A stretch of 50,031 nt of DNA from a virus: positions 1 through 50,031 of IMG/VR virus record IMGVR_UViG_3300042391_001453, one strand, 5' to 3'. The translations under genes and the position numbers were made by a program. The notes below the pieces were generated by a model. That model had not been told where the DNA came from. It saw only the letters and a program-made list of their open reading frames with translations, and ran no database searches. Shown one piece after another: positions 26,940 through 40,471 of this stretch (positions are counted from its first letter, which is position 1; the number at the start of each line of letters is the position of its first letter).

Positions 26940-26960
26940 TTAATAAATCAAGCAATTTTG

Positions 26961-26993
26961 GTAAAGGACTTTCGATAAGTCCTTTACTTTTAT
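26961..26993 (+). terminator. Intrinsic terminator ending the structural module
   Basis: A perfect 10-bp stem (GTAAAGGACT pairing with AGTCCTTTAC) with a 7-base loop (TTCGATA) is followed by TTTTATC. It sits 21 bases after the last structural stop codon, directly between the tail module and the accessory island. Confidence 0.85.
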
Positions 26994-27003
26994 CTACATT
27001 TAC

Positions 27004-27011
27004 TGTATAAT
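27004..27011 (+). promoter_or_regulatory. Possible -10-type promoter element for the accessory island
   Basis: TGTATAAT lies between the terminator and the first accessory gene. The TATAAT hexamer is a consensus sigma-70 -10 box, but no good -35 box is seen at the right distance and only six bases separate it from the ATG at 27018. It could be a middle-type or leaderless promoter, or chance. Confidence 0.3.
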
Positions 27012-27017
27012 CAAAAG

Positions 27018-27326
27018 ATGGATAATAATGACCTTGTTAAACAGGCTCGTAGCCGTTTTGATCATGCAGCGGCCAAGCGAGTTCTTAAAGAAAAATACGA
27101 AGCCAAAATGTTGTTTGCTTACAACGGTGGCATGTGGAGAGCTGGTCCCGAACTGAACACAATGATTTTTACCTGCGGGCGTGTGGGAGAAATTGTTTTA
27201 CCAGATTTGTACGAAACTCCAATCAAAGTTGATTCCGCTGAATTAATGAAGCTGAGCCAGGAACGCTGGAATGAACAAATGAATGCCTGGTTGATCGAAC
27301 ACGAAGAATTATCTCGACTACGATGA
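27018..27326 (+). CDS. Conserved T4-like phage hypothetical protein (102 residues)
   Basis: This is a small soluble protein with a helical, charged N-terminus (about 1-35), a central MLFAYNGGMWRAGPELN segment and a helical C-terminus ending in NEQMNAWLIEHEELSRLR. I recall similar proteins in marine T4-like phages, where the function is also unknown. There is no signal peptide or membrane segment. It is the first gene after the terminator and overlaps the next gene by four bases (ATGA), so it appears to lead the accessory operon. No obvious ribosome site precedes the ATG. Confidence 0.65.
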   Translation: MDNNDLVKQARSRFDHAAAKRVLKEKYEAKMLFAYNGGMWRAGPELNTMIFTCGRVGEIVLPDLYETPIKVDSAELMKLSQERWNEQMNAWLIEHEELSRLR

Positions 27327-28126
27327 TGCGCGGCGTAGTCATATTTGCTTACAACAGTGGTGACATTGATTATCAAGCAATGGCTGCTTGGAGTGCTGGC
27401 CGCATCGCTAAACATTTAGGATTACCAACTACACTAATAACTGATATTGCTCCAACCAATTCGACTGTATTCGAAGATGTTGTTGTAACTACTGCTGAGT
27501 CGGGCGGTACCAGATACTTTGCCGATATCGGCAACAACGTAACTTGGTTCAATGGCAATCGGATGGACGTGTATAATCTGAGTCCTTATGATGAAACACT
27601 AGTGTTAGATGCGGACTATGTTGTTTGTAGTGATCAGTTAAATTTATTGTTTGATTCACCGCAAGATTTTTTAGCACCGATTACAGCATATGATATCACT
27701 GGTACACGTACATTTGATGATCTTAATTTTTTTGGCAATGTGCGTATGCCCATGGCCTGGGCCACTGTTATGAAATTTCGTCGATCCCTGTTGAGTAAAA
27801 GTGTGTTTGACATGATGTCAATGATTCGAGATCACTGGCAACACTATCGAAATTTATATGGAATTGCTAGAGCTACTTATCGCAACGACCATGCATTGAG
27901 CATAGCCCTAAACACTCTTCACGGACATCAAGGTTGCTGGCCTAGCATTCCATGGCAATTGGCCAGTCTAGTACCAGAACATCGATTAACTCAATTAGAT
28001 GATGATAAGTTTCAGATCACATACAGTACTAGCGACAACAAACAGCGTTATATTATAATTGCTGGTCAAGATTTCCACGCCATGGGTAAACAACACTTGG
28101 GAGACATCATTGCCGGTACTAGCTGA
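27323..28126 (+). CDS. Glycosyltransferase-like protein (GT-A type, DAD motif)
   Basis: This 267-residue protein begins with an N-terminal strand and helix (GVVIFAYNSGDIDYQAMAAW) followed by a second strand LPTTLITD. Near residues 94-100 it has LVLDADYVV, a DxD-type motif as used by GT-A glycosyltransferases to bind the metal and nucleotide-sugar. Later segments include YRNDHALSIALNTLHGHQG, a plausible acceptor or active-site region. No membrane segment is visible, so it should be cytosolic. The next gene encodes a protein of similar layout, and the two may act on consecutive sugars. A glycosyltransferase call fits the motif and context but was not confirmed by family search. It overlaps its upstream neighbour by ATGA. 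Confidence 0.55.
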   Translation: MMRGVVIFAYNSGDIDYQAMAAWSAGRIAKHLGLPTTLITDIAPTNSTVFEDVVVTTAESGGTRYFADIGNNVTWFNGNRMDVYNLSPYDETLVLDADYVVCSDQLNLLFDSPQDFLAPITAYDITGTRTFDDLNFFGNVRMPMAWATVMKFRRSLLSKSVFDMMSMIRDHWQHYRNLYGIARATYRNDHALSIALNTLHGHQGCWPSIPWQLASLVPEHRLTQLDDDKFQITYSTSDNKQRYIIIAGQDFHAMGKQHLGDIIAGTS

Positions 28127-28916
28127 ACGAGGATATTTGATTCCTGCTATCAATACCGAGGATGTTGATTACATTGCCTGCGCAGAACAATTGGCGCAGA
28201 GTATTAGATCTTGGCATCCAGAAGCCCGCATTTGTTTAATGACAGCTGAAACTTATCAATCCAGACAATGCGGATTGTTTGATTGGGCAGTTACTTTGCC
28301 TTACGGCGACCAATCTACAAATAAAAAATGGAAATTAAGCAATGATTGGCAAGCAGGGTTCTGCTCGCCATTTCGCCAGACCATTAAACTTGAAGCTGAC
28401 ATGCTGATTACTAGTCCTATTGATCATTGGTGGACTATGCTAGAACATCGAGACATAGTGATCTCAACAGGTGCTAGAGATTATTATGATCAGCTAGTCA
28501 CTAACAGATACTATCGTGAAACATTTGATACCAACGATTTACCTGATGTATACAATGCTGTAACTTACTGGAGGCTTAGTCAAACTGCTGTAGAATTCTG
28601 GAGATTAGTTCGTGCTATATTTAAAAATTGGGAAGAATTCAAGACTTTATTAAAGTTCCCCGACGATGATCCAACAACTGACGTGGTATACGCTATGGCA
28701 GCAAAAATTATAGGCTCAGAATTAATTACCATGCCATTTGCTAGTTATCCTCGCATTGTTCACATGAAGCGCAGATTAATTGGCACACGTACAGATAATT
28801 GGACACAAGAGCTGACTTGGGAAATTGATCAAGGACGATTAAAAATCAACACTGTTGCTCAACACGGCGCATTTCATTATCTTGTTAAAACCTGGAGACC
28901 CAATGAACAACAATGA
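28110..28916 (+). CDS. Glycosyltransferase-like protein (paralogue of the preceding gene)
   Basis: The protein opens with GYLIPAINTEDVDYIACAEQ and continues to ARICLMT, the same strand-helix-strand layout as its upstream neighbour. An EAD triplet (KLEADMLI) stands where the neighbour has DAD. There is no in-frame ATG near the conserved start. I chose the TTG at 28110 because GGGAG lies six bases upstream. A TTG at 28137, preceded by GAGG, would begin right at the conserved segment and is an equally fair choice. Either start overlaps or abuts the stop of the previous gene. The C-terminal half has the DDDPTTDVVYAMAAKI and YPRIVHMKRRLIG segments. Transferase activity is inferred from layout only. 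Confidence 0.5.
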   Translation: MPVLAERGYLIPAINTEDVDYIACAEQLAQSIRSWHPEARICLMTAETYQSRQCGLFDWAVTLPYGDQSTNKKWKLSNDWQAGFCSPFRQTIKLEADMLITSPIDHWWTMLEHRDIVISTGARDYYDQLVTNRYYRETFDTNDLPDVYNAVTYWRLSQTAVEFWRLVRAIFKNWEEFKTLLKFPDDDPTTDVVYAMAAKIIGSELITMPFASYPRIVHMKRRLIGTRTDNWTQELTWEIDQGRLKINTVAQHGAFHYLVKTWRPNEQQ

Positions 28917-29247
28917 AATTTTTGAGGAATTTTGGGCGAATTATTCATGGCCAGAATCTGTGCCTGTGTTTTATCGTTTGTACTATAATGAATTGGGAGA
29001 ACCAGTAGTTTATAGCATGGAAGACCGACCTGGTAAGTATATTGAAATCACCGCCGAACAATTTGCCGCCAGTGACCCGCATGTGCGTGTTCGAAACGGC
29101 AAACTCATTCAATTGCAATTTGCAAGAACAACTAAACTGGTACCTTCTGACACAGGTACTCCTTGCGATCCCGCTAACATAGCGATAGTAGTTGACGAAA
29201 ACCAAATTTTTCAAAGATGGAAATTAACTCATTATGAAAACAGTTGA
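28903..29247 (+). CDS. Conserved phage hypothetical protein (114 residues)
   Basis: I start this gene at the ATG at 28903 because a GGAG ribosome site lies at 28894-28897 and the upstream in-frame codons read as part of the preceding gene's shadow. The protein has the pattern FYRLYYNELGEPVVYSME followed by GKYIEITAEQFAASDPHVRV and NGKLIQL. I recall such sequences in many marine T4-like phages without a known function. It is small, soluble and without cysteine clusters. It overlaps the preceding gene by 14 bases and the following one by 14 bases. Confidence 0.65.
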   Translation: MNNNEIFEEFWANYSWPESVPVFYRLYYNELGEPVVYSMEDRPGKYIEITAEQFAASDPHVRVRNGKLIQLQFARTTKLVPSDTGTPCDPANIAIVVDENQIFQRWKLTHYENS

Positions 29248-30160
29248 CATAGCAGACTTGGATGTAATTTATCTCAGTTATGATGAACCGCAGAAAGAAG
29301 AATTTTGGGTAAAAATAAAAAATCAAATCCCATGGGCGCAACGTGTAGACGGGGTTAAAGGGTCCGATGCGGCACACAAAGCCGCCGCTGAAGTCAGCAC
29401 AACTGACCGCTTTGTTCTCATCGACGGCGACAACATGCCAGACTGGGAATTTTTTAATTTAACCTTGTCATACCCTACAGCAGAATACGAAAAGGCAGTG
29501 TACCGCTGGCGTGCTCGCAACCACATCAACGGTCTCATGTACGGCAACGGTGGCATTAGTTCTTGGACTCGAGACTTTGTGCTCAACATGAAAACTCACG
29601 AGAACACCGACGGCCGTGATGAAACTGTAGTTGAATTTTGTTTTGATCCTGCATATTGGCCCATGCACGACTGCTACTCAACCACACATCCCAACGGCAG
29701 TCCCAAGCATGCTTGGCGTGCAGGGTTTAGAGAAGGTGTTAAAATGTGTCTTGACAAGGGTCGTCGCCCAACTCTGTCTGAGTTCAAAGCCCGAGTGCAT
29801 CGTCGCAATCTTGATCATCTAACTGTTTGGCATAATGTAGGAGTAGATGTCCAGCAAGGGGGCTGGGCCATTGCGGGTGCTAGGATGGGTACTTATAAGA
29901 CCATGTTAAGTGATTGGGATTACAGGGAAGTGCAGTGGTTTGATGCCTTAGAAGCTTTATGGGAAGATACCAAGGGCAGAGATCCATTTGACATCATTAT
30001 GGCATACCAGGATCCATTACGTACCCAATTAGATCTTCCTATGTGTATTCACGGTCCTGAAATAAGCAAATTTTTTAAGCATCATTATCGCAGCAACTGG
30101 CACAATCAGGGTGTCATGGTCAGAGAAATTGATGTGATTCGGAGACAAGAAGGATGGTAA
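29234..30160 (+). CDS. GT-A-like glycosyltransferase family protein (DGD motif)
   Basis: The N-terminal domain of this 308-residue protein reads LDVIYLSYDEPQKEEFW, then RVDGVKGSDAAHKAAAEV, then FVLIDGDNMPDW, with DGD at residues 64-66. This order (strand, SYDEP turn, DGVKG loop, DxD) suits a GT-A-type nucleotidyl-sugar transferase. A further conserved block, NHINGLMYGNGGISSWTRDF, and an AWRAGFREGVKMCLDKG helix follow. The C-terminal part of the 1073-residue repeat protein at 43756 is clearly the same family. The gene lies in the operon directly before the first radical SAM gene, with which it overlaps by seven bases. The sugar and acceptor are unknown. Confidence 0.6.
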   Translation: MKTVDIADLDVIYLSYDEPQKEEFWVKIKNQIPWAQRVDGVKGSDAAHKAAAEVSTTDRFVLIDGDNMPDWEFFNLTLSYPTAEYEKAVYRWRARNHINGLMYGNGGISSWTRDFVLNMKTHENTDGRDETVVEFCFDPAYWPMHDCYSTTHPNGSPKHAWRAGFREGVKMCLDKGRRPTLSEFKARVHRRNLDHLTVWHNVGVDVQQGGWAIAGARMGTYKTMLSDWDYREVQWFDALEALWEDTKGRDPFDIIMAYQDPLRTQLDLPMCIHGPEISKFFKHHYRSNWHNQGVMVREIDVIRRQEGW

Positions 30161-31557
30161 ACAACAAAGGCGACGAATCAATTGACAACAAGAGTCGATT
30201 CATGAGCTCAGCTGAGCAAATGAAGCAAGATTTAGGTCCTGCATTATGTTTAGCCAAATGGAAACAAGTCAGTTTGCACTTGCCTACAGGACTCAATAAC
30301 TCGTGTTATCATCCGCCTTTGCATGCAATTGATGCCACACTATTGGCTGACAATCCTGGTGCATTACATAACACGCCATTCAAGAAAGAACAGCGTAAAA
30401 TCATGTTACGTCAAGAAAAGCCCGCGGAGTGTAGCTACTGTTGGAACATCGAAGCACACGACCAACTAAGTGATCGTCACTATCGATCTGGCGAGCCCTG
30501 GGCAGCTGATGCATTGAATTTTGTTAAAAACTCAACCGGAGATGAAGATGTCGTTCCTAGTTATGTGGAGGTTAATTTTAACCACGCTTGTAATCTTGCT
30601 TGTAGCTATTGCAGTCCTCAATTTAGTTCCACATGGGAGCAAGAAATTAACCGCATGGGCGGATACCCTACAAGTCGTATTCACAACGATCCTAGTCACT
30701 TCACTGGCCGTAACCGGCCTATTCCTGCTAGGGACAGCAATCCTTATGTAGAAGCATTTTGGCGATGGTGGCCAACATTGTATCCACAACTGAAACATTT
30801 TCGTATGACCGGCGGCGAGCCGCTTATGGACAAAAACACCTATCGGGTATTTGACTATGTGCTGGCCTTGCCCAATCCTGATCTGCATTTGAATGTGACC
30901 AGCAACTTTAGTGTAGACACTGGCTTGTTCGAAAAGTACATTGGTTATGTAAAACAATTGTGCAACACACAAATCGAACACTTCATGCAGTATGTCAGTC
31001 TTGATTCAGGCATAGCTCGACACGCCGAATATATCAGACACGGTATGAACCACGATCGAGTAATGTCGTATTCACATCATTTTCTAGCCGAAATTCCTTA
31101 TCGCAACAGTCTCACATTTATCATCACAATGAATAATCTCGGTGTGTTGGGTTTACGGAAACTTTTGCAAGACATATTGGACATGCGACAATCCTACAGC
31201 ACAACATATCAACGTGTATGGTTTGATACACCGTTGCTGCGACAACCAGCCTGGCAAAGCCTGCAAATTTTGCCACCATCGTACGCTGATATCTTAGATC
31301 GCACAGCTGACTGGATGGAATCAAATCTAGAAACTGCCGAAGATCCTTTTCATGGCTTCAAAGATTACGAAGTTCAACGGCTACGTAGAGACATTGCCTG
31401 GATGCGAGAAGGGACTGAAAAGACGGACGAGAAGAAAGCTGATTTTTACAGATTTTTCAACGAACACGACCGTCGGCGCGGCACTGATTTTTTGCGATCA
31501 TTTCCTGAAATGACCAATTGGTGGAAGGAGTGCGAAGCGCATGCTAGAAAATCGTAA
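30154..31557 (+). CDS. Radical SAM protein 1, N-terminal Cys-rich (twitch-like) type
   Basis: The core motif CNLACSYC (Cys 146, 150, 153) binds the SAM-coordinating 4Fe-4S cluster, and TGGEPLM is the SAM-contacting GGEP motif about 75 residues later. Before the core sit extra cysteines at 32, 51, 93 and 96, in SCYHPP and ECSYCW contexts, which could hold an auxiliary iron-sulfur cluster. An auxiliary site ahead of the core recalls the N-terminal twitch class of radical SAM proteins. The reaction is a SAM-derived radical H-abstraction on an unknown substrate. It is most like the protein from 32670 and shares with it the LHNTP segment. The post-motif SSTW is conserved between them. It overlaps both neighbours. 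Confidence 0.85.
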   Translation: MVNNKGDESIDNKSRFMSSAEQMKQDLGPALCLAKWKQVSLHLPTGLNNSCYHPPLHAIDATLLADNPGALHNTPFKKEQRKIMLRQEKPAECSYCWNIEAHDQLSDRHYRSGEPWAADALNFVKNSTGDEDVVPSYVEVNFNHACNLACSYCSPQFSSTWEQEINRMGGYPTSRIHNDPSHFTGRNRPIPARDSNPYVEAFWRWWPTLYPQLKHFRMTGGEPLMDKNTYRVFDYVLALPNPDLHLNVTSNFSVDTGLFEKYIGYVKQLCNTQIEHFMQYVSLDSGIARHAEYIRHGMNHDRVMSYSHHFLAEIPYRNSLTFIITMNNLGVLGLRKLLQDILDMRQSYSTTYQRVWFDTPLLRQPAWQSLQILPPSYADILDRTADWMESNLETAEDPFHGFKDYEVQRLRRDIAWMREGTEKTDEKKADFYRFFNEHDRRRGTDFLRSFPEMTNWWKECEAHARKS

Positions 31558-32677
31558 CCTGGTCGTTGATACTTTTAGCGAAGTATACAATTTAATGAAA
31601 CCATGGATGACGCATGATTTTTGGGATTTTGCAAATCACGAAATTATTGGCAATTCCGTTTATATCATTAGCAGAAAACAATTTTTTGAATATCCGGAAA
31701 AAATTCGAACTCTATTAGAGCGCGACGATCTTATTGTATTTTTTGATAATGCAGCAGAAGGATCTTGGACATTGATCAGTCAGCTACAAGCATTAGGGCT
31801 TAAAGAGTTAGCACTAAACAAAAAATTATTCTTAATCGGCGGCGGAGATATTGAGTCATCGTATGTGCATGTGCAATTTGAGCATTTTTTATCTAGTATT
31901 TTACGCTACGAAGAAAATAGTCAAGCAACCAAACATATTGATAATATTTTTAAAAAAACTGACAAACCTTACAAATTTTTATTTCTAAACGGTCGAGCAA
32001 GACCACATCGAAAATATCTCTTCGAACGATTCAAAGAAGAAGAATTATTAGATTGTGCAATTTGGACAATGCTAGACAGTCGTCCCAGTATTAGTCGCTC
32101 TTTTAAATTAGAAAAAGATGGCATTAATTTAATGGCCACAGTTTCTCCTCTAAAATGGTTACCTGAAGAATACGAATATCAAACATATAGAGGAAATGAA
32201 ATAGTGCCGGGTCCTCCTGAGCGTACATTTATCAAACACGAATTGTTTAAAAACGAATGGGGCGAAATCTATCTAGAACCAGCTCCTTACATCGACACTT
32301 ACTTTAGTTTAGTTACAGAAACAGTGTTTGAGTATCCGTACAGTTTTAGGACAGAAAAAATAGCTAAACCATTGGCAATAGGACATCCTTTTATTGTTGC
32401 TGCCAACACAGGATTTTATCGAGACCTGCGTAATTTGGGGTTCCGAACATTCGATAATGTCATTGACGAAAGTTTTGATACTATTGAAAATCACCAAGAC
32501 CGAATGAATCGAATCTTTGAAATTGTTAAAGATCTGTGCCGACAAGATTTGCAATCTTTCCTAGCAGAGTGTTTTAATATTTGTAAATACAATCAACAGC
32601 ATCTAATTGAACTAATCCCGCAACTTCAGCAGCAATTCCCAGAAAAATTTTTTAAGACGATAAACCAACATGGATGA
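31541..32677 (+). CDS. Putative GT-B-like transferase (TEK/GHPF family), first copy
   Basis: The N-terminal two thirds of this 378-residue protein are of unrecognised sequence. They include FLFLNGRARPHRKYLFERF near residue 150, a glycosyltransferase-like NGR-P-R turn. The C-terminal region reads FRTEKIAKPLAIGHPF (about residue 270), then LRNLGFRTFDNVIDESFD. The same block occurs in the two minus-strand genes at 41492 and 42666, so the three are one family. The TEK-K-GHPF layout resembles the donor-binding end of GT-B glycosyltransferases such as fucosyltransferase-type enzymes, but I cannot name a Pfam family. It sits between radical SAM genes 1 and 2, with a strong GGAAGGAG ribosome site. 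Base composition looks slightly richer in A/T than its neighbours. Confidence 0.5.
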   Translation: MLENRNLVVDTFSEVYNLMKPWMTHDFWDFANHEIIGNSVYIISRKQFFEYPEKIRTLLERDDLIVFFDNAAEGSWTLISQLQALGLKELALNKKLFLIGGGDIESSYVHVQFEHFLSSILRYEENSQATKHIDNIFKKTDKPYKFLFLNGRARPHRKYLFERFKEEELLDCAIWTMLDSRPSISRSFKLEKDGINLMATVSPLKWLPEEYEYQTYRGNEIVPGPPERTFIKHELFKNEWGEIYLEPAPYIDTYFSLVTETVFEYPYSFRTEKIAKPLAIGHPFIVAANTGFYRDLRNLGFRTFDNVIDESFDTIENHQDRMNRIFEIVKDLCRQDLQSFLAECFNICKYNQQHLIELIPQLQQQFPEKFFKTINQHG

Positions 32678-33998
32678 TTTAACATTCCGCAAGCAAGTAC
32701 TTGATCCGCTAAGTTCTAGTTTTTGTGGAGCCAAGTGGTACAATGCTACAATCTGGCTAGGATCCGGCATGACCACTAGTTGTCACCATCCGCCGGCGCA
32801 TAAAGTCGGTGTGGAAGCAGTGACAGCCAATCCCCGGGCTCTGCACAACACTCCTGAGAAAAAAAGAGATCGGGCGCAGATGATTGCGGGAGAACGTCCG
32901 CCTGGCTGCGAATACTGTTGGAAGATTGAAGACATCGGACGTGACAACATCAGCGACCGTGTTTATAAAAGCAAAATATATCCCATAGCAGAATTAAAAG
33001 CTGCTGCAGCAATGCCAGTGGATCAAGATGTCAATCTTAAAACGCTGGAAATTGCGTTTGATCGCACTTGTCAGTTTGCTTGTAGTTACTGTAATCCTGC
33101 ATTCAGCAGCACCTGGGTCAATGATATCAAAAAGCACGGAGCATACATCAATTTGGTAAGCGACGGTCGCAATCACTTTACTCACACGCACGAGTCTGCA
33201 CAGTTATATCGATTTGGCGAAACAAATCCTTATGTGGAAGCATTTTTTCGTTGGTGGGAAACTGACTTACATCGTACACTAGACGAGTTACGAATTACCG
33301 GCGGCGAGCCGTTGATGTCAGGATATACCTGGCGTCTAATTGATTGGTTCAAAGACAATCGCGGAGCAAGTGCAACCCGATTGGCCATCAATAGTAACCT
33401 AGGTGTTGATATTGACCTGGATAGATTTATCAACAGTGTCGACGGACTAGCAGTAGATGTGTACACCAGCAACGAGTGTTACGGCAACCATGCAGAATAT
33501 ATAAGAGACGGTCTTGATTACCCTGCCTGGTGCGACAATGTAATCAAGTTGTTAGAAAGTTCTGTTCGAGCAGTGCATGTCATGTGCACCATCAATGCTT
33601 TGTGCTTGGAAACCTTACCAGAGTTTTTATCATCTCTGGTAGCATTAAAAAATATCTATGGACGTGAACGAGTTAATTTTACCTTAAATATTTTACGATT
33701 TCCTAGCTTCCAGAGTCCCCTAATTTTGCCCGACGAAATCAAAACACGTTACCGTAAAAACCTAGAAGCATGGCTAGATTACAATGCAGACAATCCTGTC
33801 ATGCAGGAACACGAACTAAATCATTTGCAGCGTTTAATTGACTACTTAGACACAGTCAAAACACCACACAGAGAAACGTTTGATATGCCTAAGCTATTGA
33901 ATGATTTCAAACAATTTTATGCACAATACGATCAGCGTAGAAACAAAGACTTTACAACGACGTTCCCTAAACTAAAAGAATGGTACAATTCACTATGA
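32670..33998 (+). CDS. Radical SAM protein 2, paralogue of protein 1
   Basis: The core motif is CQFACSYC (Cys 134, 138, 141), followed by NPAFSSTW and, about 80 residues later, TGGEPLM. The N-terminal auxiliary cysteines are at 19, 38, 80 and 83, in SCHHPP and GCEYCW contexts, matching the layout of protein 1. The two share LHNTP, NPYVEAF(F/W)RWW and HAEYIR stretches, so they are duplicates that have diverged. Four bases of TTTPKL-like tail are not informative. The gene overlaps the transferase before it by eight bases and its own stop overlaps the next start. It likely acts on the same or a consecutive substrate as protein 1; this is inference. Confidence 0.85.
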   Translation: MDDLTFRKQVLDPLSSSFCGAKWYNATIWLGSGMTTSCHHPPAHKVGVEAVTANPRALHNTPEKKRDRAQMIAGERPPGCEYCWKIEDIGRDNISDRVYKSKIYPIAELKAAAAMPVDQDVNLKTLEIAFDRTCQFACSYCNPAFSSTWVNDIKKHGAYINLVSDGRNHFTHTHESAQLYRFGETNPYVEAFFRWWETDLHRTLDELRITGGEPLMSGYTWRLIDWFKDNRGASATRLAINSNLGVDIDLDRFINSVDGLAVDVYTSNECYGNHAEYIRDGLDYPAWCDNVIKLLESSVRAVHVMCTINALCLETLPEFLSSLVALKNIYGRERVNFTLNILRFPSFQSPLILPDEIKTRYRKNLEAWLDYNADNPVMQEHELNHLQRLIDYLDTVKTPHRETFDMPKLLNDFKQFYAQYDQRRNKDFTTTFPKLKEWYNSL

Positions 33999-35317
33999 GC
34001 AAACTTAGTAATTACAACTGGAAGGATCGCATACCTAATTATATAAAAATTGATTCACTAAATGAAGATCAACGACACAAATTAATCGATAGCGACACAT
34101 TCTGCATGCTTCCGTGGATACATTTACATGCATGGCCGGATGGGCGTGCTTATCCTTGCTGTCTGGGCCAGGCTAAACATCCAGTAGGAAATTTCAAAGA
34201 AAAAAGCATGAGAGAGATATGGAACGACGAACCCATGAAAGAAATGCGTCGCAACATGCTAGCAGATAAGCCTTGCAAACAATGCGGAGATTGTTATGAG
34301 CAAGAAGCTGCTGGATTTTCGAGTATGAGAAATAACAGTAATAAAAGCTTTGGACACTACATTGACGAAATCGATCAGACATTACCAGACGGCAGTTTAC
34401 CTGATATGAAATTGCACTATTGGGACGTGAGATTCAGCAACATTTGCAATCTTAAGTGTCGCAGTTGTGGTAGTATTTTTAGCAGCAGATGGTATGATGA
34501 TGATGTTAAACTTTGGGGCAAGCCTTTGCGTCCGCGAGTACAATTTGCAGGGCGGCACGAAGAAGATGTTTGGGAACAAATGCAAGAGCACATTCCGCAC
34601 TTAGAACAAATTTATTTTGCTGGTGGCGAACCGTTGATAATGGAAGAACATAATCGCATACTTAAACTGCTGATCGAAAAAGGCAACACACGAGTAAGAT
34701 TAATCTATAACACAAATCTTACAGAATTGAAATTCAAAAAAGAAAGCGTTTTAGAACTATGGAAACATTTTCCTTCGGTATGTGTAGCTGCTAGTCTTGA
34801 TGATATGGGCGATCGAGCTGCTGTAATCAGATCTGGTACCGACTGGACACAGGTAGAACAAAACATACGTGATCTCAAAAGAGAATGTCCACATATCGAT
34901 TTTATGATTAGTCCTACATTGAGTATGATGAACATATGGAATTTTGTCAACTTTCATCGATATATGATCGAAGGAGGGTTTATTGAACCCAAGGATTTTA
35001 ATCTAAATATTCTTCAAGGTCCCGATGACTACAGAATCGACGTATTGCCAATGGAGATAAAATTACAATTTAAGCAACAGTTTGAAGAACATATTGAATG
35101 GTTACGTCCTCAAGATCCTATAGAACGTGCAGTAGGCGGATTCGAAGGCGCAATAAAATTTATGATGGCTACTGACAACACACACCTGTTGCCTAAATTC
35201 TGGAAAACAGTTAATGACCTTGACTGGAGTCGCAGCGAAAGTTTGTTGTCGGTTGTACCAGAATTATCTGCTATAATTGAACATAGACCGATCGATACAA
35301 GGGTTCCGATAAAATGA
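33995..35317 (+). CDS. Radical SAM protein 3, N-terminal SPASM/twitch type
   Basis: I start at the ATG at 33995 because it forms an ATGA overlap with the preceding stop; an in-frame ATG at 33980 would add five residues. The N-terminus is a textbook SPASM-like unit: FCMLPWIHL (Cys 37), AYPCC (Cys 55, 56), then GNFKEKSMREIW and CKQCGDC (Cys 94, 97, 100). The radical SAM core follows as CNLKCRSC (Cys 151, 155, 158) and then AGGEPLI. SPASM regions normally follow the core; here the order is reversed, as in the N-terminal twitch class. SPASM proteins often modify peptides or proteins. The true substrate is unknown. It is closest to the two genes that follow. Confidence 0.85.
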   Translation: MSKLSNYNWKDRIPNYIKIDSLNEDQRHKLIDSDTFCMLPWIHLHAWPDGRAYPCCLGQAKHPVGNFKEKSMREIWNDEPMKEMRRNMLADKPCKQCGDCYEQEAAGFSSMRNNSNKSFGHYIDEIDQTLPDGSLPDMKLHYWDVRFSNICNLKCRSCGSIFSSRWYDDDVKLWGKPLRPRVQFAGRHEEDVWEQMQEHIPHLEQIYFAGGEPLIMEEHNRILKLLIEKGNTRVRLIYNTNLTELKFKKESVLELWKHFPSVCVAASLDDMGDRAAVIRSGTDWTQVEQNIRDLKRECPHIDFMISPTLSMMNIWNFVNFHRYMIEGGFIEPKDFNLNILQGPDDYRIDVLPMEIKLQFKQQFEEHIEWLRPQDPIERAVGGFEGAIKFMMATDNTHLLPKFWKTVNDLDWSRSESLLSVVPELSAIIEHRPIDTRVPIK

Positions 35318-36525
35318 AATTACCTACAGATAAATTCTGCGTACTACCATGGATCAGCTTAGAAGCCAGTCCGATAGGTACAGTGCGTCCTTGCTGTTTA
35401 GCCGACGACGAAATCGTTGACAATGCCGGTAACAAATTTGAATTGGCCACAGCTAATTTTATAGATATACAGAACAGTAATCACATGCGTCAATTGCGGG
35501 AACAATTTTTAGACGGACAAAAACCACAAACTTGTCGCAAGTGTTGGAATGAAGAACGATCAGGTCGTACTAGTAAACGTATGCATACACTGGATAGACT
35601 TAAACACATGTTGCCAGACCAGGATTGGACAACTGATGCCAAGTCGCTTATGTTTTTAGATTTAAAATTGGGTAACATTTGCAATTTAAAATGTCGTATC
35701 TGCGGTTCTTGGAGTAGTAGTCAATTTGCTGCTGAAGAACTAGGTCACATGAATCCAGCAGAAGATAAAAAGAAAACATTTGCTTATCAAATGCTAAAGG
35801 CAGGAGCATGGCCTAGAGAAAATCAACAGTTTTGGAATCAACTGGATTCTGTTGTTGACCAGATTCGATATATTGAATTCACTGGCGGCGAGCCATTTAT
35901 GATACAAGAACATTTTCAGTTACTGGAACGTTTAGTTGATCGCGGCATCGCTGGACAAGTTGAAATTCACTACAACACCAACGGCACACAGTTCCCAGAA
36001 CAAGCTGAAAACATTTGGCAGCATTTTAAAACAGTAGAAATCGCTTTCAGCATCGACGATCTAGGCGATAGATTTGAATATCAACGAACCAATGCTGTAT
36101 GGTCGGAAGTTGAGCACAACATTGCTAAATTCGATGCTATGCGTTTCCGTAATTCCAACATACAGTTACAGGCATGCATCACAGTCAATATATTCAACAT
36201 TTATTATATTGCCGAAGTAGCCAAGTGGGCTGCAAAACAAAATTTTAATTTCGTTTACTGGAACATGATGCATGACGCTTGGTATTTTAGCATTGCTACC
36301 TTGCCCGAATCGGCAAAATCTGCTATTACTCAACATCTCAGTCAACAAGATGTTCCAATACAATACCGAGCAGAATTTGAGAGAATTTGCGATTTTATGA
36401 ATCGAGGAGCTTCAACCGACGGATCAATACTACGAATGAAGATACGTGATCTAGATCATAAACGTAATCAAGATCTAAGACAAGTAGCAGCTGAATTTGC
36501 TGAGTTAATTGATTACAAATTATAA
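35314..36525 (+). CDS. Radical SAM protein 4, N-terminal SPASM/twitch type
   Basis: This 403-residue protein has FCVLPWISL (Cys 9), VRPCC (Cys 27, 28) and TCRKCW (Cys 74, 77) at the N-terminus, then the core CNLKCRIC (Cys 123, 127, 130) with TGGEPFM following. It shares the domain order and linker pattern of proteins 3 and 5. The stretch between the auxiliary cysteines and the core is shorter than in protein 3. An SDD-like FSIDDLGDRFEYQRTN segment matches the equivalent ASLDDMGDR region of protein 3. The start overlaps the preceding stop (ATGA). Confidence 0.85.
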   Translation: MKLPTDKFCVLPWISLEASPIGTVRPCCLADDEIVDNAGNKFELATANFIDIQNSNHMRQLREQFLDGQKPQTCRKCWNEERSGRTSKRMHTLDRLKHMLPDQDWTTDAKSLMFLDLKLGNICNLKCRICGSWSSSQFAAEELGHMNPAEDKKKTFAYQMLKAGAWPRENQQFWNQLDSVVDQIRYIEFTGGEPFMIQEHFQLLERLVDRGIAGQVEIHYNTNGTQFPEQAENIWQHFKTVEIAFSIDDLGDRFEYQRTNAVWSEVEHNIAKFDAMRFRNSNIQLQACITVNIFNIYYIAEVAKWAAKQNFNFVYWNMMHDAWYFSIATLPESAKSAITQHLSQQDVPIQYRAEFERICDFMNRGASTDGSILRMKIRDLDHKRNQDLRQVAAEFAELIDYKL

Positions 36526-36528
36526 TAC

Positions 36529-37827
36529 ATGCAAAAACCAGAAACACTATGTATGGCACCGTGGACTCATACGTATCTAAGTCCGCAAACCGAAAGACGT
36601 ATGTGCTGTGCCAGCAGAGAGCCTGCTCAAAATTTTCAACAGTACATTGATACAAGTGCAGGAACTGGACGTTATATTCCAATCACACTCGATCAGCACT
36701 GGAATAGCGAACACATGAAAAGTGTTCGTCGTAGAATGATGGCCGGAGAAATCTTGCCCGAGTGCGAAGTTTGTAACGATAAGCTGTTAAATACAGATGT
36801 CTATAGAACTTATTTTTGGCATTTGTTTAAACACAAGTATCAAGACATATGGACTTCAACTGACGACACTGGTGCAACTACAATGAAACCAGTTAGTTGG
36901 GACTATCGTTTTAGTAATTTATGCAATTTTAAATGTAGGACTTGTGGAGACATGTTGTCCAGTGCATGGGAAAGCGAGCAACGGCAAAATAATATGATCG
37001 ACTGGTCGAATCCTAAAAATAACTGGATGCTACCGGAAGTTAAACAAGAAATTACTGCTTTTCAAGATAGACAAATAGAAGCCGAATTTGCGCAAGCAGT
37101 GGCAGAACATAGAGTAGAAGAAGTTTATTGGGTCGGTGGAGAACCGCTCATGTACGAACAGCATTGGCGATACATGCGTCAGATTGTCGATCAAGGCGAC
37201 GGAGGACTTGTTTATGCTAGGTATAATACTAATCTTAGCCGCGTACAGTATCGCGGTATTGATCTTTACAGCGACATACTTGATCGTATACGTGATTGGC
37301 AAATCTGTGCCAGTATCGACGGTACAGGAGCCGTCGGAGAATACATTCGTACCGGATTATCATGGCCTGTATTTTTAGAAAATTTCAAACGAGGTGTTGA
37401 TCACATGCGTCATCCTCGTCAGATGAGATTAGATTTTACATTAACATTACCTGGATTATTTGAAGTATCTAATATGCAATCAGCTGCTGATCAATTGGGA
37501 GTAGGTATTTTGGCCAAGGTTATATTCAGCTTTAGTCCAGACATTATCATGAGTCCACTGGCATTACCTCGACACATATTAGATAGAAAAATCAATCAGC
37601 TGGTAAAACAATTGCCCGCAGGTGCCTTGCAAGATTTATTGTTACAGCTTAAATCCAGACCTACGTTCCAGGAACAGTGGCCCGATCAATGGCGCGATGG
37701 ATTGGTCAAAGGCAAACAAAGAGTATTAAAACTAGAACACATTAGAAAGGATCGTTATACGTTAGGAGATATTCTAAGTGAAGATTCCGAAATAAAACAA
37801 TGGTGGGACGATGTCAAAACAAATTAA
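36529..37827 (+). CDS. Radical SAM protein 5, N-terminal SPASM/twitch type
   Basis: This 432-residue protein has LCMAPWTHT (Cys 8), RMCC (Cys 26, 27) and ECEVC (Cys 79, 82), then the core CNFKCRTC (Cys 132, 136, 139) and VGGEPLM. The later SIDGTGAVGEYIRTGLSW segment is equivalent to the SLDDMGD segments of its neighbours and is typical of the sixth strand region of radical SAM barrels. It is the last of five radical SAM genes in a row (with one transferase between the first two). A TATAAT hexamer occurs over the preceding stop, but given the packed context I do not call it a promoter. It overlaps the following gene by 17 bases. Confidence 0.85.
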   Translation: MQKPETLCMAPWTHTYLSPQTERRMCCASREPAQNFQQYIDTSAGTGRYIPITLDQHWNSEHMKSVRRRMMAGEILPECEVCNDKLLNTDVYRTYFWHLFKHKYQDIWTSTDDTGATTMKPVSWDYRFSNLCNFKCRTCGDMLSSAWESEQRQNNMIDWSNPKNNWMLPEVKQEITAFQDRQIEAEFAQAVAEHRVEEVYWVGGEPLMYEQHWRYMRQIVDQGDGGLVYARYNTNLSRVQYRGIDLYSDILDRIRDWQICASIDGTGAVGEYIRTGLSWPVFLENFKRGVDHMRHPRQMRLDFTLTLPGLFEVSNMQSAADQLGVGILAKVIFSFSPDIIMSPLALPRHILDRKINQLVKQLPAGALQDLLLQLKSRPTFQEQWPDQWRDGLVKGKQRVLKLEHIRKDRYTLGDILSEDSEIKQWWDDVKTN

Positions 37828-38902
37828 AATGACGCTTGGGAATTATTTAACCGGAGATAAATTACCAGTTTATATCGATGTTTACCAAAATTCACTGAGT
37901 GAAAAATGGATGGCTTCGTTAAATCAATTATTGAAAAATAATTATCATCTTGAAAAAAATTATTGTTTTTTTGGATTTGTCGACAACGAACGTGACGGAC
38001 CCTATATACTAGAACAGATTAATAAATCAATAGCAGCTATTAATGCGTCTAATTTAGACTACCACATTGACGATTATTTTTCTATGTCGAACACTATAGC
38101 ACCTGGTGAAATAGGTGATGGCAAACCAGGAAGAAAAATTATTCGTGACAAGTTTAACTGGCTGCATAGATATTTTGAAGATCTTCAAGGAGTAAGTGGT
38201 AACTTATCGCCGCACTATATCAAAGCCGATGCAACAACACGATGGCATATTAGACAATTGAACTTGCTGTGCCACGAGTTTGAATCCTGGGCACTGAGCT
38301 ATCGAAAAGTTGCACACGCACCTGAATGGCAACGCATGAGTCAGTTGATGTGTTGGTTACATGCTCCGAGATTTGTGTTAGATAACGAAGATTATGACTT
38401 GTTTGGGATTGAAACAATCAATAGATCATTGGGTGGTGTATACATAGGAGTAAACAAAGCTGTAGGTAAACATCACTGGGAAGTATTTTGTGACGAAGGT
38501 AGAGATTCCAGATTAGAAGAATTAGTAACTACATCATTGAGACCTCAAACTGAAGCTGCTGGAGATTTTGATATCGAATGGTCCAACGATCCTGGAAAAT
38601 ACCACTGGCAACAAAAAATGCTAGGAGATTTTAGAACATGGTTAGTCAACAACGGATTTGATCCAGACGACAAAATGCTAACGATCGGGCACCCGAAAAT
38701 TGCACAAGTTAATTTGCAAAAATCTTTCGGCACAGAAAATTATCAACACATTTGGAATACGCTCTATAAATATCTCGACGTGTACAGCATCGAAACCGAT
38801 TCGGAATCTGCAATGTATGATTATCATTGGTCAGATTCTGATTTTGTTGAACGGCAAATAGAAATAATATTCAAAGGAAAAGCAAATGAATTGGCTGCGT
38901 AA
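37811..38902 (+). CDS. Protein of unknown function in the radical SAM operon (363 residues)
   Basis: I do not recognise this protein. It is soluble, acidic to neutral, rich in Trp and His, and has no cysteine cluster, membrane segment or signal peptide. Notable stretches are KYHWQQKMLGDFRTWLVNNG and SLGGVYIGVNKAVGKHHWEV. The C-terminal region contains KMLTIGHPKIAQVNLQKSFG, which suggests a beta-strand and loop. It is tightly coupled to radical SAM 5 (17-base overlap) and the start of the basic microprotein lies in its last codons. A role as substrate carrier, partner or accessory enzyme of the radical SAM set is possible; I see no direct support for one. Confidence 0.6.
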   Translation: MSKQIKMTLGNYLTGDKLPVYIDVYQNSLSEKWMASLNQLLKNNYHLEKNYCFFGFVDNERDGPYILEQINKSIAAINASNLDYHIDDYFSMSNTIAPGEIGDGKPGRKIIRDKFNWLHRYFEDLQGVSGNLSPHYIKADATTRWHIRQLNLLCHEFESWALSYRKVAHAPEWQRMSQLMCWLHAPRFVLDNEDYDLFGIETINRSLGGVYIGVNKAVGKHHWEVFCDEGRDSRLEELVTTSLRPQTEAAGDFDIEWSNDPGKYHWQQKMLGDFRTWLVNNGFDPDDKMLTIGHPKIAQVNLQKSFGTENYQHIWNTLYKYLDVYSIETDSESAMYDYHWSDSDFVERQIEIIFKGKANELAA

Positions 38903-38987
38903 AATCATTGACAAAATTAAATTAGAAATTCGATATAGAAAGAAACTCAAAGAACTACGCAAAAGAGATCCGTTTATCTACAAATGA
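38886..38987 (+). CDS. Basic microprotein, 33 residues
   Basis: This small frame has an AGGA ribosome site seven bases upstream, starts inside the end of the previous gene and has its stop overlapping the carbamoyltransferase start (ATGA). The product is MNWLRKIIDKIKLEIRYRKK followed by LKELRKRDPFIYK, an amphipathic basic helix with a short tail ending in DPFIYK. I recall short proteins with the same KKLKELRKRDPFIY pattern in marine T4-like phages. A role in nucleic-acid or membrane contact is possible, but unproven. Its position and coupling suggest it is real. Confidence 0.6.
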   Translation: MNWLRKIIDKIKLEIRYRKKLKELRKRDPFIYK

Positions 38988-40471
38988 AACATATCTTAGG
39001 AATCAGTGCTGGATTTCATGATGCTGCTGCTACTGTAGTTCGCAAAGACGGAGAAATAGTATTTGCCGGACACAGTGAACGATACAGCAAGAAAAAGAAT
39101 GATGCCGATATTTCGTTAGAATTATTAAACGAAATTGACATGTCTTCTATTGATACTATTGCTTATTACGAACGTCCTGCAATGAAGCAACTGCGTCAAC
39201 TCTACAGCGGTCAAGGCATTGAGTGGAATAAATTAACAGCTCGGCAAGTTCTTGAGAAGCAGCTGGGCTTTAATAGAATCAATGGTCGTCAATTACAAAC
39301 TTACAATCATCATTTAAGTCATGCAGCAGCAGGATTTCAAACCAGTCCCTTTGATCGTGCTACCGTAGTAGTTATTGATGCAATCGGTGAATGGGACACA
39401 ATTAGTATATGGGCAGCAGATTATAGTCGGATGGGTCAAGCAGTTTATAGAAAACTTTGGGGACAGCGTTATCCCCACTCAATAGGACTTTTTTATAGTG
39501 CAATTACTCAGCGAGTCGGACTACATCCATTGGACGAAGAATACATAACCATGGGTATGGCAGCATGGGGGAAATCGACACATTCTCTAGCCATGCTCGA
39601 TGATTTATTACAAGATCAATCAGCTATTCGATTCAAAGATAATTTACATACCGGAATTGATCAATCTTGGATGTCTTCTGTAAAGAACGAAGACATTGCG
39701 GCTAGTGCTCAAGAACTTGCCGAACAACTGATTTACAATGTAATGCAACGAGCTGCTGAGTTTAATTGGAGCGATAATTTAGTTTACATGGGTGGAGTGG
39801 CTTTAAATTGCTTGGCCAATAGAAATCTTGGAAATTATTTTGATAAAATTTGGATTATGCCTTGCCCTGGTGATGCTGGTAGTAGCCTCGGTGCCGCTGC
39901 CCTGGCTCATGGTCGTCGCCTTAATTGGCAACATCCCTACCTGGGTCATGTTATACCTGGCGCATACCCTGTTGCTACTGCTGTTGATTGTTTGCTTGCT
40001 GATCGCATCGTGGGAGTAGCCAGTGGCGCAGCGGAATTTGGACCACGAGCACTGGGCAACAGAAGTTTGTTGGCCGATCCACGCGGCCCTGATATCAAGG
40101 AACAAGTAAATGAAATCAAACGTAGACAACAATTTAGACCTTTTGCCCCTGTCATCTTGGAAGAATATGCTGATCAATACTTTGATCTTCCTTGCGGTTT
40201 CGATAGTAGTCCTTATATGCAATCTGTCGCCCGCTGTCTGGCTCCTGACTTATATCCTGCTATTGTTCACGTGGATGGCACTAGTAGAGTTCAAACAGTG
40301 GCTCCGGACTCGAGCTCAGGAATCAGACAACTGTTAGAAGCCTGGCATGCACGCACCGGATGTCCTATGTTGTTAAATACCAGCTTAAACATCAGAGGTG
40401 AACCCATGGTCAACAATAGAGCTGACGCTGATAGATTTGAAAAATTATATGGAGTAAAAGTAGTTTCGTAA
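38984..40471 (+). CDS. Carbamoyltransferase (NodU/CmcH/TobZ family)
   Basis: The N-terminal Kae1-like part opens with HILGISAGFHDAAATVV and contains NHHLSHAAAGF, with the His 109/His 113 metal site, plus an AIGEWDT segment. The middle carries LVYMGGVALNCLANRNLG and CPGDAGSSLGAAA. The C-terminal carbamoyltransferase domain has EFGPRALGNRSLLADPR (about residue 353), FRPFAPVIL and PMLLNTSLNIRGEP. Enzymes of this family transfer a carbamoyl group from carbamoyl phosphate, via carbamoyl-AMP, to a hydroxyl of a sugar or other metabolite, as in Nod factors or antibiotics. At 495 residues it is somewhat shorter than most members but keeps both domains. It ends the + strand accessory operon and converges with the amidinotransferase gene. 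Confidence 0.9.
   Translation: MKHILGISAGFHDAAATVVRKDGEIVFAGHSERYSKKKNDADISLELLNEIDMSSIDTIAYYERPAMKQLRQLYSGQGIEWNKLTARQVLEKQLGFNRINGRQLQTYNHHLSHAAAGFQTSPFDRATVVVIDAIGEWDTISIWAADYSRMGQAVYRKLWGQRYPHSIGLFYSAITQRVGLHPLDEEYITMGMAAWGKSTHSLAMLDDLLQDQSAIRFKDNLHTGIDQSWMSSVKNEDIAASAQELAEQLIYNVMQRAAEFNWSDNLVYMGGVALNCLANRNLGNYFDKIWIMPCPGDAGSSLGAAALAHGRRLNWQHPYLGHVIPGAYPVATAVDCLLADRIVGVASGAAEFGPRALGNRSLLADPRGPDIKEQVNEIKRRQQFRPFAPVILEEYADQYFDLPCGFDSSPYMQSVARCLAPDLYPAIVHVDGTSRVQTVAPDSSSGIRQLLEAWHARTGCPMLLNTSLNIRGEPMVNNRADADRFEKLYGVKVVS

What the first reader, a model, noticed from the sequence alone, without database searches (positions are those of the whole stretch)
30154..37827. Five radical SAM genes in one phage operon, all with cysteine-rich regions ahead of the core
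All five carry CxxxCxxC and GGEP motifs and additional N-terminal cysteines that could hold auxiliary clusters. Tandem runs of so many radical SAM enzymes are rare in any genome and suggest a multi-step radical chemistry on one substrate, or several substrates of the same type. With transferases, a carbamoyltransferase and an amidinotransferase nearby, a phage-encoded modification pathway is a plausible hypothesis.
Basis: partly seen in the sequence, partly recalled or inferred. Interest (0 to 1): 0.85.

Follow-up and report, generated by a model that had tools for sequence, protein, structure and literature searches.

The report
Conserved five-enzyme radical SAM phage cassette
Many uncultured environmental phages carry, near their tail genes, the same ordered set of five distinct radical enzymes with a sugar-type carbamoyltransferase, which looks like an uncharacterised multi-step pathway (most likely for decorating a glycan) rather than a one-off oddity.

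Summary
In detail: R1 30154-31557, R2 32670-33998, R3 33980-35317, R4 35314-36525 and R5 36529-37827 all exceed the cut-off of NCBIfam N_Twi_rSAM; a sixth, non-radical-SAM gene (31541-32677) lies between R1 and R2. The cassette is neither unique nor a recent duplication. In 100 dereplicated viral loci over 20 kb, R1-R5 occur in 91, 98, 98, 94 and 99 (all five in 86), and an unknown cyclophilin-like protein and a NovN/GdmN/TobZ-type O-carbamoyltransferase in 99 each (loci found by bait). Each of R1-R5 is its own clade. The radical-cluster and twitch cysteines are invariant in the 103-133 complete high-scoring orthologues per gene. The operon has its own terminator-promoter junction, and 15 of 16 related records over 300 kb encode IscU. 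Best reading: a stepwise radical pathway that oxidises, deoxygenates or epimerises sugars of a glycan linked to host recognition, then O-carbamoylates it. Protein (tail-fibre) modification is the main rival. Multi-radical-SAM clusters in phages are in print; the passages I read give no mechanism, and I found no description of this five-paralogue core. Substrate and reactions are untested.

The parts
26960..27011 (+). terminator-like 12-pair stem followed by a sigma70-like promoter; start of the cassette operon
   Evidence: the same junction in relatives: promoter-like in 26 of 35 gaps (shuffle mean 3.1, max 7), terminator-like in 22 of 35 (mean 2.0, max 6)
27018..27326 (+). A27.0, 102 aa, unknown, first gene of the operon
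   Evidence: no Pfam or PHROGs match
27323..28126 (+). B27.3, putative GT-A type glycosyltransferase (DxD read by eye)
   Evidence: no Pfam or PHROGs match; alignment A5
28059..28916 (+). C28.0, putative glycosyltransferase (by eye); true start may lie downstream of the listed TTG
   Evidence: weak PHROG 1903, unknown function
28855..29247 (+). D28.8, unknown; likely starts at an internal ATG
29234..30160 (+). E29.2, 308 aa, highly conserved, glycosyltransferase-like by a DxD read by eye only
   Evidence: median pairwise identity 69%; no family match, no PDB match below E 0.9
30154..31557 (+). R1, N-terminal-twitch radical SAM enzyme
   Evidence: NF033640 291.9 bits; cluster Cys and GGE 103 of 103
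31541..32677 (+). F31.5, not radical SAM; putative glycosyltransferase (by eye) in a variable slot
   Evidence: no Pfam or PHROGs match; slot analysis
32670..33998 (+). R2, N-terminal-twitch radical SAM enzyme
   Evidence: 291.3 bits; 131 of 131
33980..35317 (+). R3, N-terminal-twitch radical SAM enzyme
   Evidence: 417.4 bits; SPASM and Radical_SAM above cut-off; 133 of 133 except C99, 49 of 133; model
35314..36525 (+). R4, N-terminal-twitch radical SAM enzyme
   Evidence: 338.5 bits; 126 of 126
36529..37827 (+). R5, N-terminal-twitch radical SAM enzyme, the most conserved of the five
   Evidence: 279.4 bits; 131 of 131; median identity 72%
37811..38902 (+). G37.8, possibly cyclophilin-like fold with a helical insert, constant neighbour of R5
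   Evidence: no gap of 300 bp or more between R5 and G37.8 in 133 of 133 loci; model pLDDT 86; VIA-align Z 7.7-8.9, 37 of 50 rows named cyclophilin or PPIase
38984..40471 (+). CARB, O-carbamoyltransferase of the NovN/GdmN/TobZ type
   Evidence: Pfam PF16861 and PF02543 over cut-off; PDB NovN 4.7e-52, GdmN, TobZ
40476..41495 (-). AMID, amidinotransferase (accessory)
   Evidence: profile hits GATM 3.9e-19, StrB1 8.8e-14, SxtG 5e-13
41492..42682 (-). H41.5, shares a C-terminal motif with F31.5 and I42.7 (by eye), putative glycosyltransferase
   Evidence: no Pfam or PHROGs match
42666..43757 (-). I42.7, as H41.5
   Evidence: no Pfam or PHROGs match
43756..46977 (+). J43.7, 1073-aa repeat protein whose C-terminal part resembles E29.2 (by eye)
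   Evidence: no Pfam or PHROGs match; sequence
46953..48038 (-). DegT/DnrJ/EryC1/StrS aminotransferase
   Evidence: 219.9 bits; best PDB chain glutamine--scyllo-inositol transaminase
48035..49003 (-). NAD-dependent epimerase/dehydratase, nucleotide-sugar type
   Evidence: 149.5 bits; PHROG 540 nucleotide-sugar epimerase

Best explanation
A phage-encoded glycan-tailoring pathway in the host-recognition (tail-fibre) part of the genome. Putative glycosyltransferases build a sugar or glycan. Five non-redundant twitch-type radical SAM enzymes act on it in turn; each cleaves SAM at its CxxxCxxC cluster, abstracts an H atom from the sugar, and uses the N-terminal auxiliary cluster as electron acceptor or substrate anchor, giving alcohol oxidation, deoxygenation or epimerisation. 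CARB then O-carbamoylates the product, and in some phages AMID and DegT/epimerase add guanidino and amino groups. G37.8 works with R5. The product decorates the virion's receptor-binding structures or the infected cell's surface. Shown: genes, fold of R3, cofactor motifs, conservation, gene order. Inferred: substrate, reactions, order of steps, purpose.
For: Linkage to CARB: of 64 CARB-anchored loci with >8 kb upstream, 63 have R5 and G37.8; dereplicated, 50 of 51. A marine single-cell virus contig has a CARB relative (49%) directly followed by an R3 relative. CARB is closest to NovN/GdmN/TobZ, which carbamoylate sugars or ansamycins (recalled). AMID and DegT match aminocyclitol-type enzymes StrB1 and scyllo-inositol transaminase. 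The slots R1-R2 and R4-R5 are filled by F31/H41/I42-type proteins or accessory radical SAM genes. Vibrio phage K566 interleaves five such radical SAM genes, two above the NF033640 cut-off, with two Pfam GT8 enzymes. Cellular homologues lie within a few genes of GT2 or polysaccharide genes in 3 of the 6 loci I listed, of 15 found. PMC7029224 section 6 describes radical SAM cassettes and glycosyltransferases in the pelagimyophage host-recognition cluster. R3's top structural match is BlsE, Z 12.7, tied with others; BtrN twitch match only E=0.099. The 159-kb record also encodes KdsA, GalE and part of a UDP-galactopyranose mutase.
Against: The window's own putative glycosyltransferases have no Pfam match; the label is by eye. 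Peptide-modifying enzymes (SuiB, anSME, SkfB) tie with BlsE structurally. G37.8, if cyclophilin-like, would suggest a peptide ligand. CARB relatives at under 60% identity occur in 134 phage records, mostly cyanophages, while R3 and R5 match 3 and 2 records, so this carbamoyltransferase family does not by itself need the cassette. KdsA-family genes occur in 1 of 12 records. AMID and DegT are found in 54 and 50 of 100 loci (flanks end early in some). PMC7029224 (passage) says the freshwater pelagimyophages it describes lack both LPS and radical SAM genes. The Paenibacillus homologue sits among genes that look like ACPs and ketosynthases. No substrate was tested.
Confidence: 0.45

Rival explanations
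1. Protein maturation: the five enzymes modify side chains of a virion protein (tail fibre, baseplate or the Ser/Thr/Gly-rich protein at 25956-26939), as SPASM maturases do with peptides, with G37.8 as substrate-binding partner.
For: Many known SPASM/twitch enzymes act on peptides (recalled); R3 model matches SuiB, anSME, SkfB at Z 12.3; G37.8 possibly cyclophilin-like; cassette beside tail genes; Aeromonas 332-Vera has 8 radical SAM genes inside its structural gene cluster (PMC12390700, passage read).
Against: No separate precursor-peptide gene: genes overlap from 27018 to 38902 and the two gaps hold stop-free stretches of at most 26 codons; ORFs inside other genes and A27.0/D28.8 are not excluded. 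The carbamoyl-, amidino- and aminotransferase neighbours fit sugars better. The neighbouring virion-like protein gt26 is more variable (36%, only 9 pairs) than R1, R2, R5 (67-72%).
Confidence: 0.28
2. Small-molecule product: a secreted or intracellular aminoglycoside-like compound made by the phage during infection.
For: The toolkit (twitch radical SAM, DegT, amidinotransferase, TobZ-type carbamoyltransferase) resembles that of aminoglycoside pathways (pathway knowledge recalled); Paenibacillus homologue near a protein with a weak BtrH_N match, 18.9 bits against a cut-off of 29.7.
Against: No exporter or resistance gene recognised among the annotated window proteins (many are unknown); gain to a phage unclear; linkage to tail genes.
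Confidence: 0.09
3. Nucleic-acid or nucleotide chemistry: DNA hypermodification or viperin-like antiviral nucleotides.
For: Viperin structures are among R3 matches; the 159-kb record has QueE-, QueD- and FolE-like genes; ThyX in the window.
Against: Viperin model far below cut-off (16.6-30.3 of 180 bits where listed); position beside tail genes; sugar-type partners.
Confidence: 0.07
4. Assembly artefact or recent tandem duplication.
For: None found.
Against: Same order in other contigs; R1-R5 are separate clades with support 0.98-1.0.
Confidence: 0.01

Closest known systems
NCBIfam NF033640 N_Twi_rSAM (twitch domain-containing radical SAM protein)
   Same: All five proteins match nearly full length above cut-off.
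   Different: The model's description names no function; here five orthologous subfamilies are fixed in one operon with G37.8 and CARB.
Multi-radical-SAM genes in pelagimyophage host-recognition clusters, a TARA T4-like genome and Aeromonas phage 332-Vera (PMC7029224, PMC5332604, PMC12390700)
   Same: Several radical SAM genes, in two of the three reports near tail genes; Fe-S carrier genes in T4-like genomes.
   Different: The passages read give counts or cassettes without orthology, partners or mechanism; whether theirs contain R1-R5 was not tested.
BtrN (2-deoxy-scyllo-inosamine dehydrogenase, butirosin)
   Same: Radical SAM with one auxiliary cluster in a twitch domain; cyclitol substrate (PMC9012708, passages).
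   Different: SPASM/twitch domains are C-terminal extensions in the known enzymes (PMC9012708), N-terminal here; sequence match only E=0.099.
TobZ/GdmN/NovN O-carbamoyltransferases
   Same: Both domains and strong sequence similarity.
   Different: Phage-borne and shorter (495 aa); acceptor unknown.
Vibrio phage K566 radical SAM/glycosyltransferase cluster
   Same: Five N_Twi-type genes interleaved with GT8 and GT4-like genes.
   Different: Branches apart from R1-R5; no Vibrio phage among the CARB matches and no G37.8 match in the phages collection.

Membership tests
NF033640 N_Twi_rSAM | whole-protein score above curated cut-off 170 | tested here: met
   279-417 bits, 5 of 5
NF033640 N_Twi_rSAM | twitch/SPASM-like cysteine motif N-terminal to the radical SAM core | tested here: met
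   CX(12-13)GX4C in R1-R4, R5 without the Gly; cysteines invariant. The motif formula is recalled, not from a call.
Radical SAM superfamily | CxxxCxxC, GGE motif, barrel fold | tested here: met
   (fold tested for R3 only)
Radical SAM superfamily | reductive SAM cleavage, 4Fe-4S clusters | not testable with these tools
   needs biochemistry and EPR
BtrN-type dehydrogenase | sequence and fold relation, two-electron oxidation of a cyclitol | tested here: inconclusive
   BtrN twitch E=0.099; reaction not tested
Viperin | NF038283 cut-off 180 bits | tested here: not met
   16.6, 19.3, 30.3 and 19.7 bits for R1, R3, R4, R5; not listed for R2
RiPP maturase system | precursor peptide gene beside the maturase | tested here: inconclusive
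   none in the two gaps (at most 26 stop-free codons); ORFs overlapping other genes, A27.0 and D28.8 not excluded; RRE not tested
NodU/TobZ O-carbamoyltransferase | Carbam_trans_N and Carbam_trans_C over cut-off | tested here: met
   138.6 and 170.4 bits
Amidinotransferase (GATM/StrB1) | sequence relation to solved amidinotransferases | tested here: met
   Cys324/325 invariant in 13 of 13 aligned; activity not tested
Cyclophilin | fold | tested here: inconclusive
   Z 7.7-8.9 over 132-152 residues, little above the tool's stated background; no Foldseek match at E<=0.001
T4-like contractile phage | baseplate wedge and hub proteins | tested here: met
   PHROGs baseplate wedge and hub/lysozyme families
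Pelagimyophage host-recognition cluster | location between VrlC and gp14 | not tested
   cassette is downstream of baseplate and giant fibre-like genes; the two markers were not sought

The most novel reading that the evidence does not exclude
A previously undescribed viral radical-enzyme assembly line: five ancient, non-interchangeable radical SAM paralogues, each acting once on a conserved sugar scaffold, making an aminoglycoside-like carbamoylated glycan as a virion or cell-surface coat, supported in the largest phages by phage-encoded IscU and IscA.
Probability: 0.33. Interest if true: 0.85.

Novelty: new variant of a known kind. Interest (0 to 1): 0.64.

Why it matters
The N_Twi_rSAM model names no function, and runs of radical SAM genes in phages have been reported as an oddity or counted without a mechanism in the passages I read. 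The core (E29.2, R1-R5, G37.8, CARB), with invariant cluster cysteines and hundreds of copies in public viral contigs, defines a concrete, testable pathway. If it acts on glycans, phages would hold new radical sugar chemistry and a new way to alter receptor recognition or the cell surface.

Tried and rejected
Rejected: misassembly or recent duplication. Rejected: a lone rarity.

Led nowhere: T4-type late promoters. TATAAATA occurs once (3.57 expected) and ATAAATA 5 times (14 expected); though the 5 sites lie in the tail module or before CARB, this is no evidence for late transcription. Sigma70-like sites counted over 23.5-43.4 kb are at chance level (49 found, 52.6 expected) and so are terminators (15, 14.1); only the comparison across relatives is informative, and its shuffles kept single-base, not dinucleotide, composition. 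PDB profile searches for G37.8, E29.2, F31.5 and B27.3 gave nothing I could use (best CghA, E=0.061, for B27.3). In the phages collection R2, G37.8, E29.2 and gt26 have no match and R5 matches only Vibrio phages K566/K567 at 23%; R1 and R4 were not searched there. Phage C48C1 has CARB and IscU relatives; no gene annotated within 9 kb of its CARB is called radical SAM. Substrate guess from cellular homologues: contexts differ. Host: not settled. Sample environments: not looked up. A family absent from the VIA-align lists is not thereby excluded.

Biases: loci were found with R3, CARB or R5 as bait (only the best 80 of 456 and of 413 kept for the last two), so presence counts are conditional on a bait; the CARB-anchored count is the fairest. 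Presence counts depend on a score threshold: with best label above 60, 200 or 300 bits all five R genes are in 89, 86 or 85 of 100 loci, and G37.8 in 99, 99 or 76. Conservation counts used ORFs over 400 bits that do not touch a contig end: R1 103 of 125 labelled in representatives, R2 131 of 144, R3 133 of 156, R4 126 of 147, R5 131 of 139; the dropped ones are accessory copies and fragments. Of 1,160 radical SAM ORFs over all loci 1,135 have CxxxCxxC. Tree: 45 of 100 long loci, sampled at random.
Full report
OBSERVATION. The window is a virus record of 50,031 bp, GC 41.5%. Five proteins at the stated place are radical SAM enzymes: each carries one CxxxCxxC and one GGEP and scores 279-417 bits against NCBIfam NF033640, N_Twi_rSAM, cut-off 170. 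Generic Pfam Radical_SAM passes its cut-off for only two of the five. The cysteines ahead of the core fit CX(12-13)GX4C plus a CxxC in R1-R4; R5 keeps the cysteines without the glycine (that this is the SPASM/twitch formula is recalled). The run is not strictly tandem: F31.5 (31541-32677) lies between R1 and R2 and matches no radical SAM family. Genes from 27018 to 38902 overlap or nearly touch (spacing -68 to +3 bp), as in one operon; CARB follows after 81 bp.

STRUCTURE. R3 folded with 121 rows from the session gives pLDDT 94.9, pTM 0.92. Foldseek gives 37 PDB matches at E<=0.001, 35 of them radical SAM enzymes and 2 LeuA. VIA-align ranks BlsE (Z 12.7, 221 residues, 3.7 A), SuiB, anSME, SkfB (12.3) and MoaA (12.2) as ties, so the fold does not choose between sugar and peptide substrates. 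A profile of R3 orthologues touches the BtrN twitch domain only at E=0.099.

THE CASSETTE IN OTHER PHAGES. R3, CARB and R5 used as baits found 70, 456 and 413 related stretches in viral contigs (69, 80 and 80 loci kept, a few contigs shared). The 228 viral loci collapse to 142 groups. In the 100 representatives over 20 kb, with best label above 200 bits, R1, R2, R3, R4, R5, G37.8 and CARB occur in 91, 98, 98, 94, 99, 99 and 99; all five R genes in 86; E29.2 in 62. Misses include loci whose flank ends early; this was not separated. Judged from CARB-anchored loci with more than 8 kb upstream, 63 of 64 have R5 and G37.8, 62 R3, 61 R2 and 61 R4; dereplicated, 50, 49, 48 and 48 of 51. The usual gene order is E29.2-R1-(variable)-R2-R3-R4-(variable)-R5-G37.8-(variable)-CARB. 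Between R5 and G37.8 no gap reaches 300 bp in 133 of 133. The R1-R2 slot (n=111) holds an F31/H41/I42-type gene in 58 and an accessory radical SAM gene in 14 (3 hold both), other sequence in 23 and nothing in 19; the R4-R5 slot (n=125) has 32 and 8 (2 both), 12 and 75. Whole records carry 5-14 NF033640 matches at E<=0.001 (30 of 30 searched; not all need exceed the cut-off).

FIVE OLD PARALOGUES WITH INTACT MOTIFS. In a tree of 247 proteins from 45 loci plus the window, cellular and Vibrio phage members, each of R1-R5 is an exclusive clade (38, 49, 40, 44 and 46 members; support 0.98-1.0); R1 and R2 are sisters, and R3 groups with the cellular proteins (0.96). In complete orthologues over 400 bits every radical-cluster cysteine, the twitch cysteines and GGE are invariant: R1 103 of 103, R2 131 of 131, R3 133 of 133 (C99 excepted, 49 of 133), R4 126 of 126, R5 131 of 131 (rows dropped are told). 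All 56 complete accessory copies over 300 aa have CxxxCxxC and an upstream CxxC. Median pairwise identity is 81% for AMID where present, 72 R5, 69 E29.2, 68 R1, 67 R2, 65 CARB, 59 R4, 53 EPIM, 50 R3, 50 A27.0, 48 C28.0, 43 H41.5, 42 F31.5, 42 G37.8, 41 DEGT, 40 B27.3, 36 gt26 (9 pairs), 32 I42.7. The substrate of R1, R2, R5 and E29.2 should therefore be more constant than the putative glycosyltransferases and gt26. R3 and G37.8 do not fit this contrast.

PARTNERS. CARB has both carbamoyltransferase domains and is closest to NovN, GdmN and TobZ among solved structures. More distant CARB relatives (all under 60% identity) are in 134 phage records, 98 of them named Synechococcus, where R3 and R5 find 3 and 2 records: the family is common without this cassette. 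The DegT protein matches glutamine--scyllo-inositol transaminase best. G37.8 has no sequence relative in the PDB at E<=5 and no Foldseek match at E<=0.001. VIA-align lists 50 rows at Z 7.7-8.9 (132-152 residues, 3.4-4.0 A), 37 of them named cyclophilin or PPIase, the top one a mitoribosomal chain; that is suggestive, not proof. The glycosyltransferase label of B27.3, C28.0, E29.2, F31.5, H41.5 and I42.7 rests on motifs read by eye.

EXPRESSION AND COFACTOR SUPPLY. The 78-bp gap before the operon holds a terminator-like stem and a TATAAT element. In relatives a promoter-like element occurs in 26 of 35 such gaps (shuffles: mean 3.1, max 7) and a terminator in 22 (mean 2.0, max 6). The cassette thus seems to have its own host-type promoter, separate from the tail genes; this may mean earlier expression, which fits host-surface or precursor chemistry at least as well as late virion modification. 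None of the 24 shorter records has it; they may be fragments. IscA lies next to IscU in 4 of the first 6. Among 50,697 phage records 17 hold an IscU relative. No jumbo phage without the cassette was tested as a control, so IscU may belong to the lineage rather than to the cassette. PMC5332604 reports an A-type Fe-S carrier with 12 radical SAM genes in a T4-like genome (passage).

CONTEXT. Upstream genes are T4-like baseplate wedge and hub proteins and a 4,643-aa protein with an FG-GAP repeat and a sub-cut-off T7-tail match. Section 6 of PMC7029224 places glycosyltransferases, tail fibres and added radical SAM cassettes in the pelagimyophage host-recognition cluster; another passage of it says that the freshwater pelagimyophages lack radical SAM and LPS genes. 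PMC12390700 (passage) reports eight radical SAM genes inside the structural cluster of a giant Aeromonas phage. Vibrio phage K566 has three annotated radical SAM genes near each other plus one further on; I read a fifth (20194-21456, annotated hypothetical) from its sequence. NF033640 is the best NCBIfam match for all five, above cut-off for two. They interleave with two Pfam GT8 enzymes; two further neighbours have GT4 matches below cut-off or none. A marine single-cell virus contig has a CARB relative followed by an R3 relative. Cellular single-copy relatives lie near GT2, phosphodiesterase or polysaccharide-flippase genes in three loci (L076, L077, L078) and in other contexts in three (L075, L080, L083); the other 9 of 15 loci were not examined for context.

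WHAT IT IS. Best supported: a conserved multi-step radical pathway whose enzymes act one after another on a carbohydrate linked to host recognition, ending in O-carbamoylation (0.45). Virion-protein modification is the chief rival (0.28). Shown: identity, fold of R3, cofactor motifs, orthology, synteny, operon-like layout, Fe-S carriers in the largest records. Not shown: any reaction, substrate, order or purpose.

NOVELTY. Several radical SAM genes per phage are in print (PMC5332604, PMC7029224, PMC12390700), as are single ones or a few in jumbo phages (PMC5468394, PMC6143709). The searches and 107 of an open-licence library listed no paper that I recognised as describing the five-paralogue core or a function for it. 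I saw passages of eight papers (PMC5332604, PMC11002830, PMC7029224 with its section 6, PMC7150976, PMC12390700, PMC5468394, PMC6143709, PMC9012708) and listings of the rest; subscription papers are mostly not held.

Noticed in passing
L244 8551-9238 and L247 7383-8086: Adjacent iscU-iscA genes in >300-kb phage records carrying the cassette; L247 also has a B12-binding radical SAM gene (KedN5-like, far below cut-off) directly downstream (8087-9715).
   Followed up: partly
L256 2050-2880, 1-548, 4845-5795: The 159-kb relative of the window encodes KDO-8-phosphate synthase (KdsA, above cut-off), part of a UDP-galactopyranose mutase at a stretch end and GalE; KdsA-family genes were in 1 of 12 records.
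   Followed up: partly
L254 9973-11145 and 4960-5970: Same record: a Porin_4 outer-membrane porin and a PBP-like protein that looks like a phosphate-binding PstS; they might hint at a betaproteobacterial host (recalled, not tested).
   Followed up: partly
L255 16522-17376, L256 2884-3411, L256 3494-4225: QueE-like (below curated cut-offs), QueD-like (PTPS) and GTP cyclohydrolase I genes, possibly a 7-deazaguanine pathway.
   Followed up: no
L256 18206-20000: A second amidinotransferase-like gene (by eye; no Pfam match) next to what looks by eye like part of another radical SAM gene in the same record.
   Followed up: no
L075 6275-20239: Paenibacillus homologue of R3 inside a cluster that by eye holds carrier proteins, ketosynthases, an AMP-ligase and thioesterases; a possible tractable system for learning what N_Twi_rSAM enzymes do.
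   Followed up: partly
window 43756-46977: 1073-aa protein with about six repeats of a roughly 75-residue unit around SWxPxPxDPPYIYVFGNQW and an E29.2-like C-terminus (by eye); no family match.
   Followed up: no
window 9829-23760: 4,643-aa ORF downstream of the baseplate genes with FG-GAP and weak T7-tail and CBM matches, presumably a giant tail fibre.
   Followed up: no
G033:C1:65423-65806 and G039:C1:258224-258602: IscU genes of two >300-kb records are interrupted (one in-frame TAG; one split over two frames), by sequencing error or decay.
   Followed up: no
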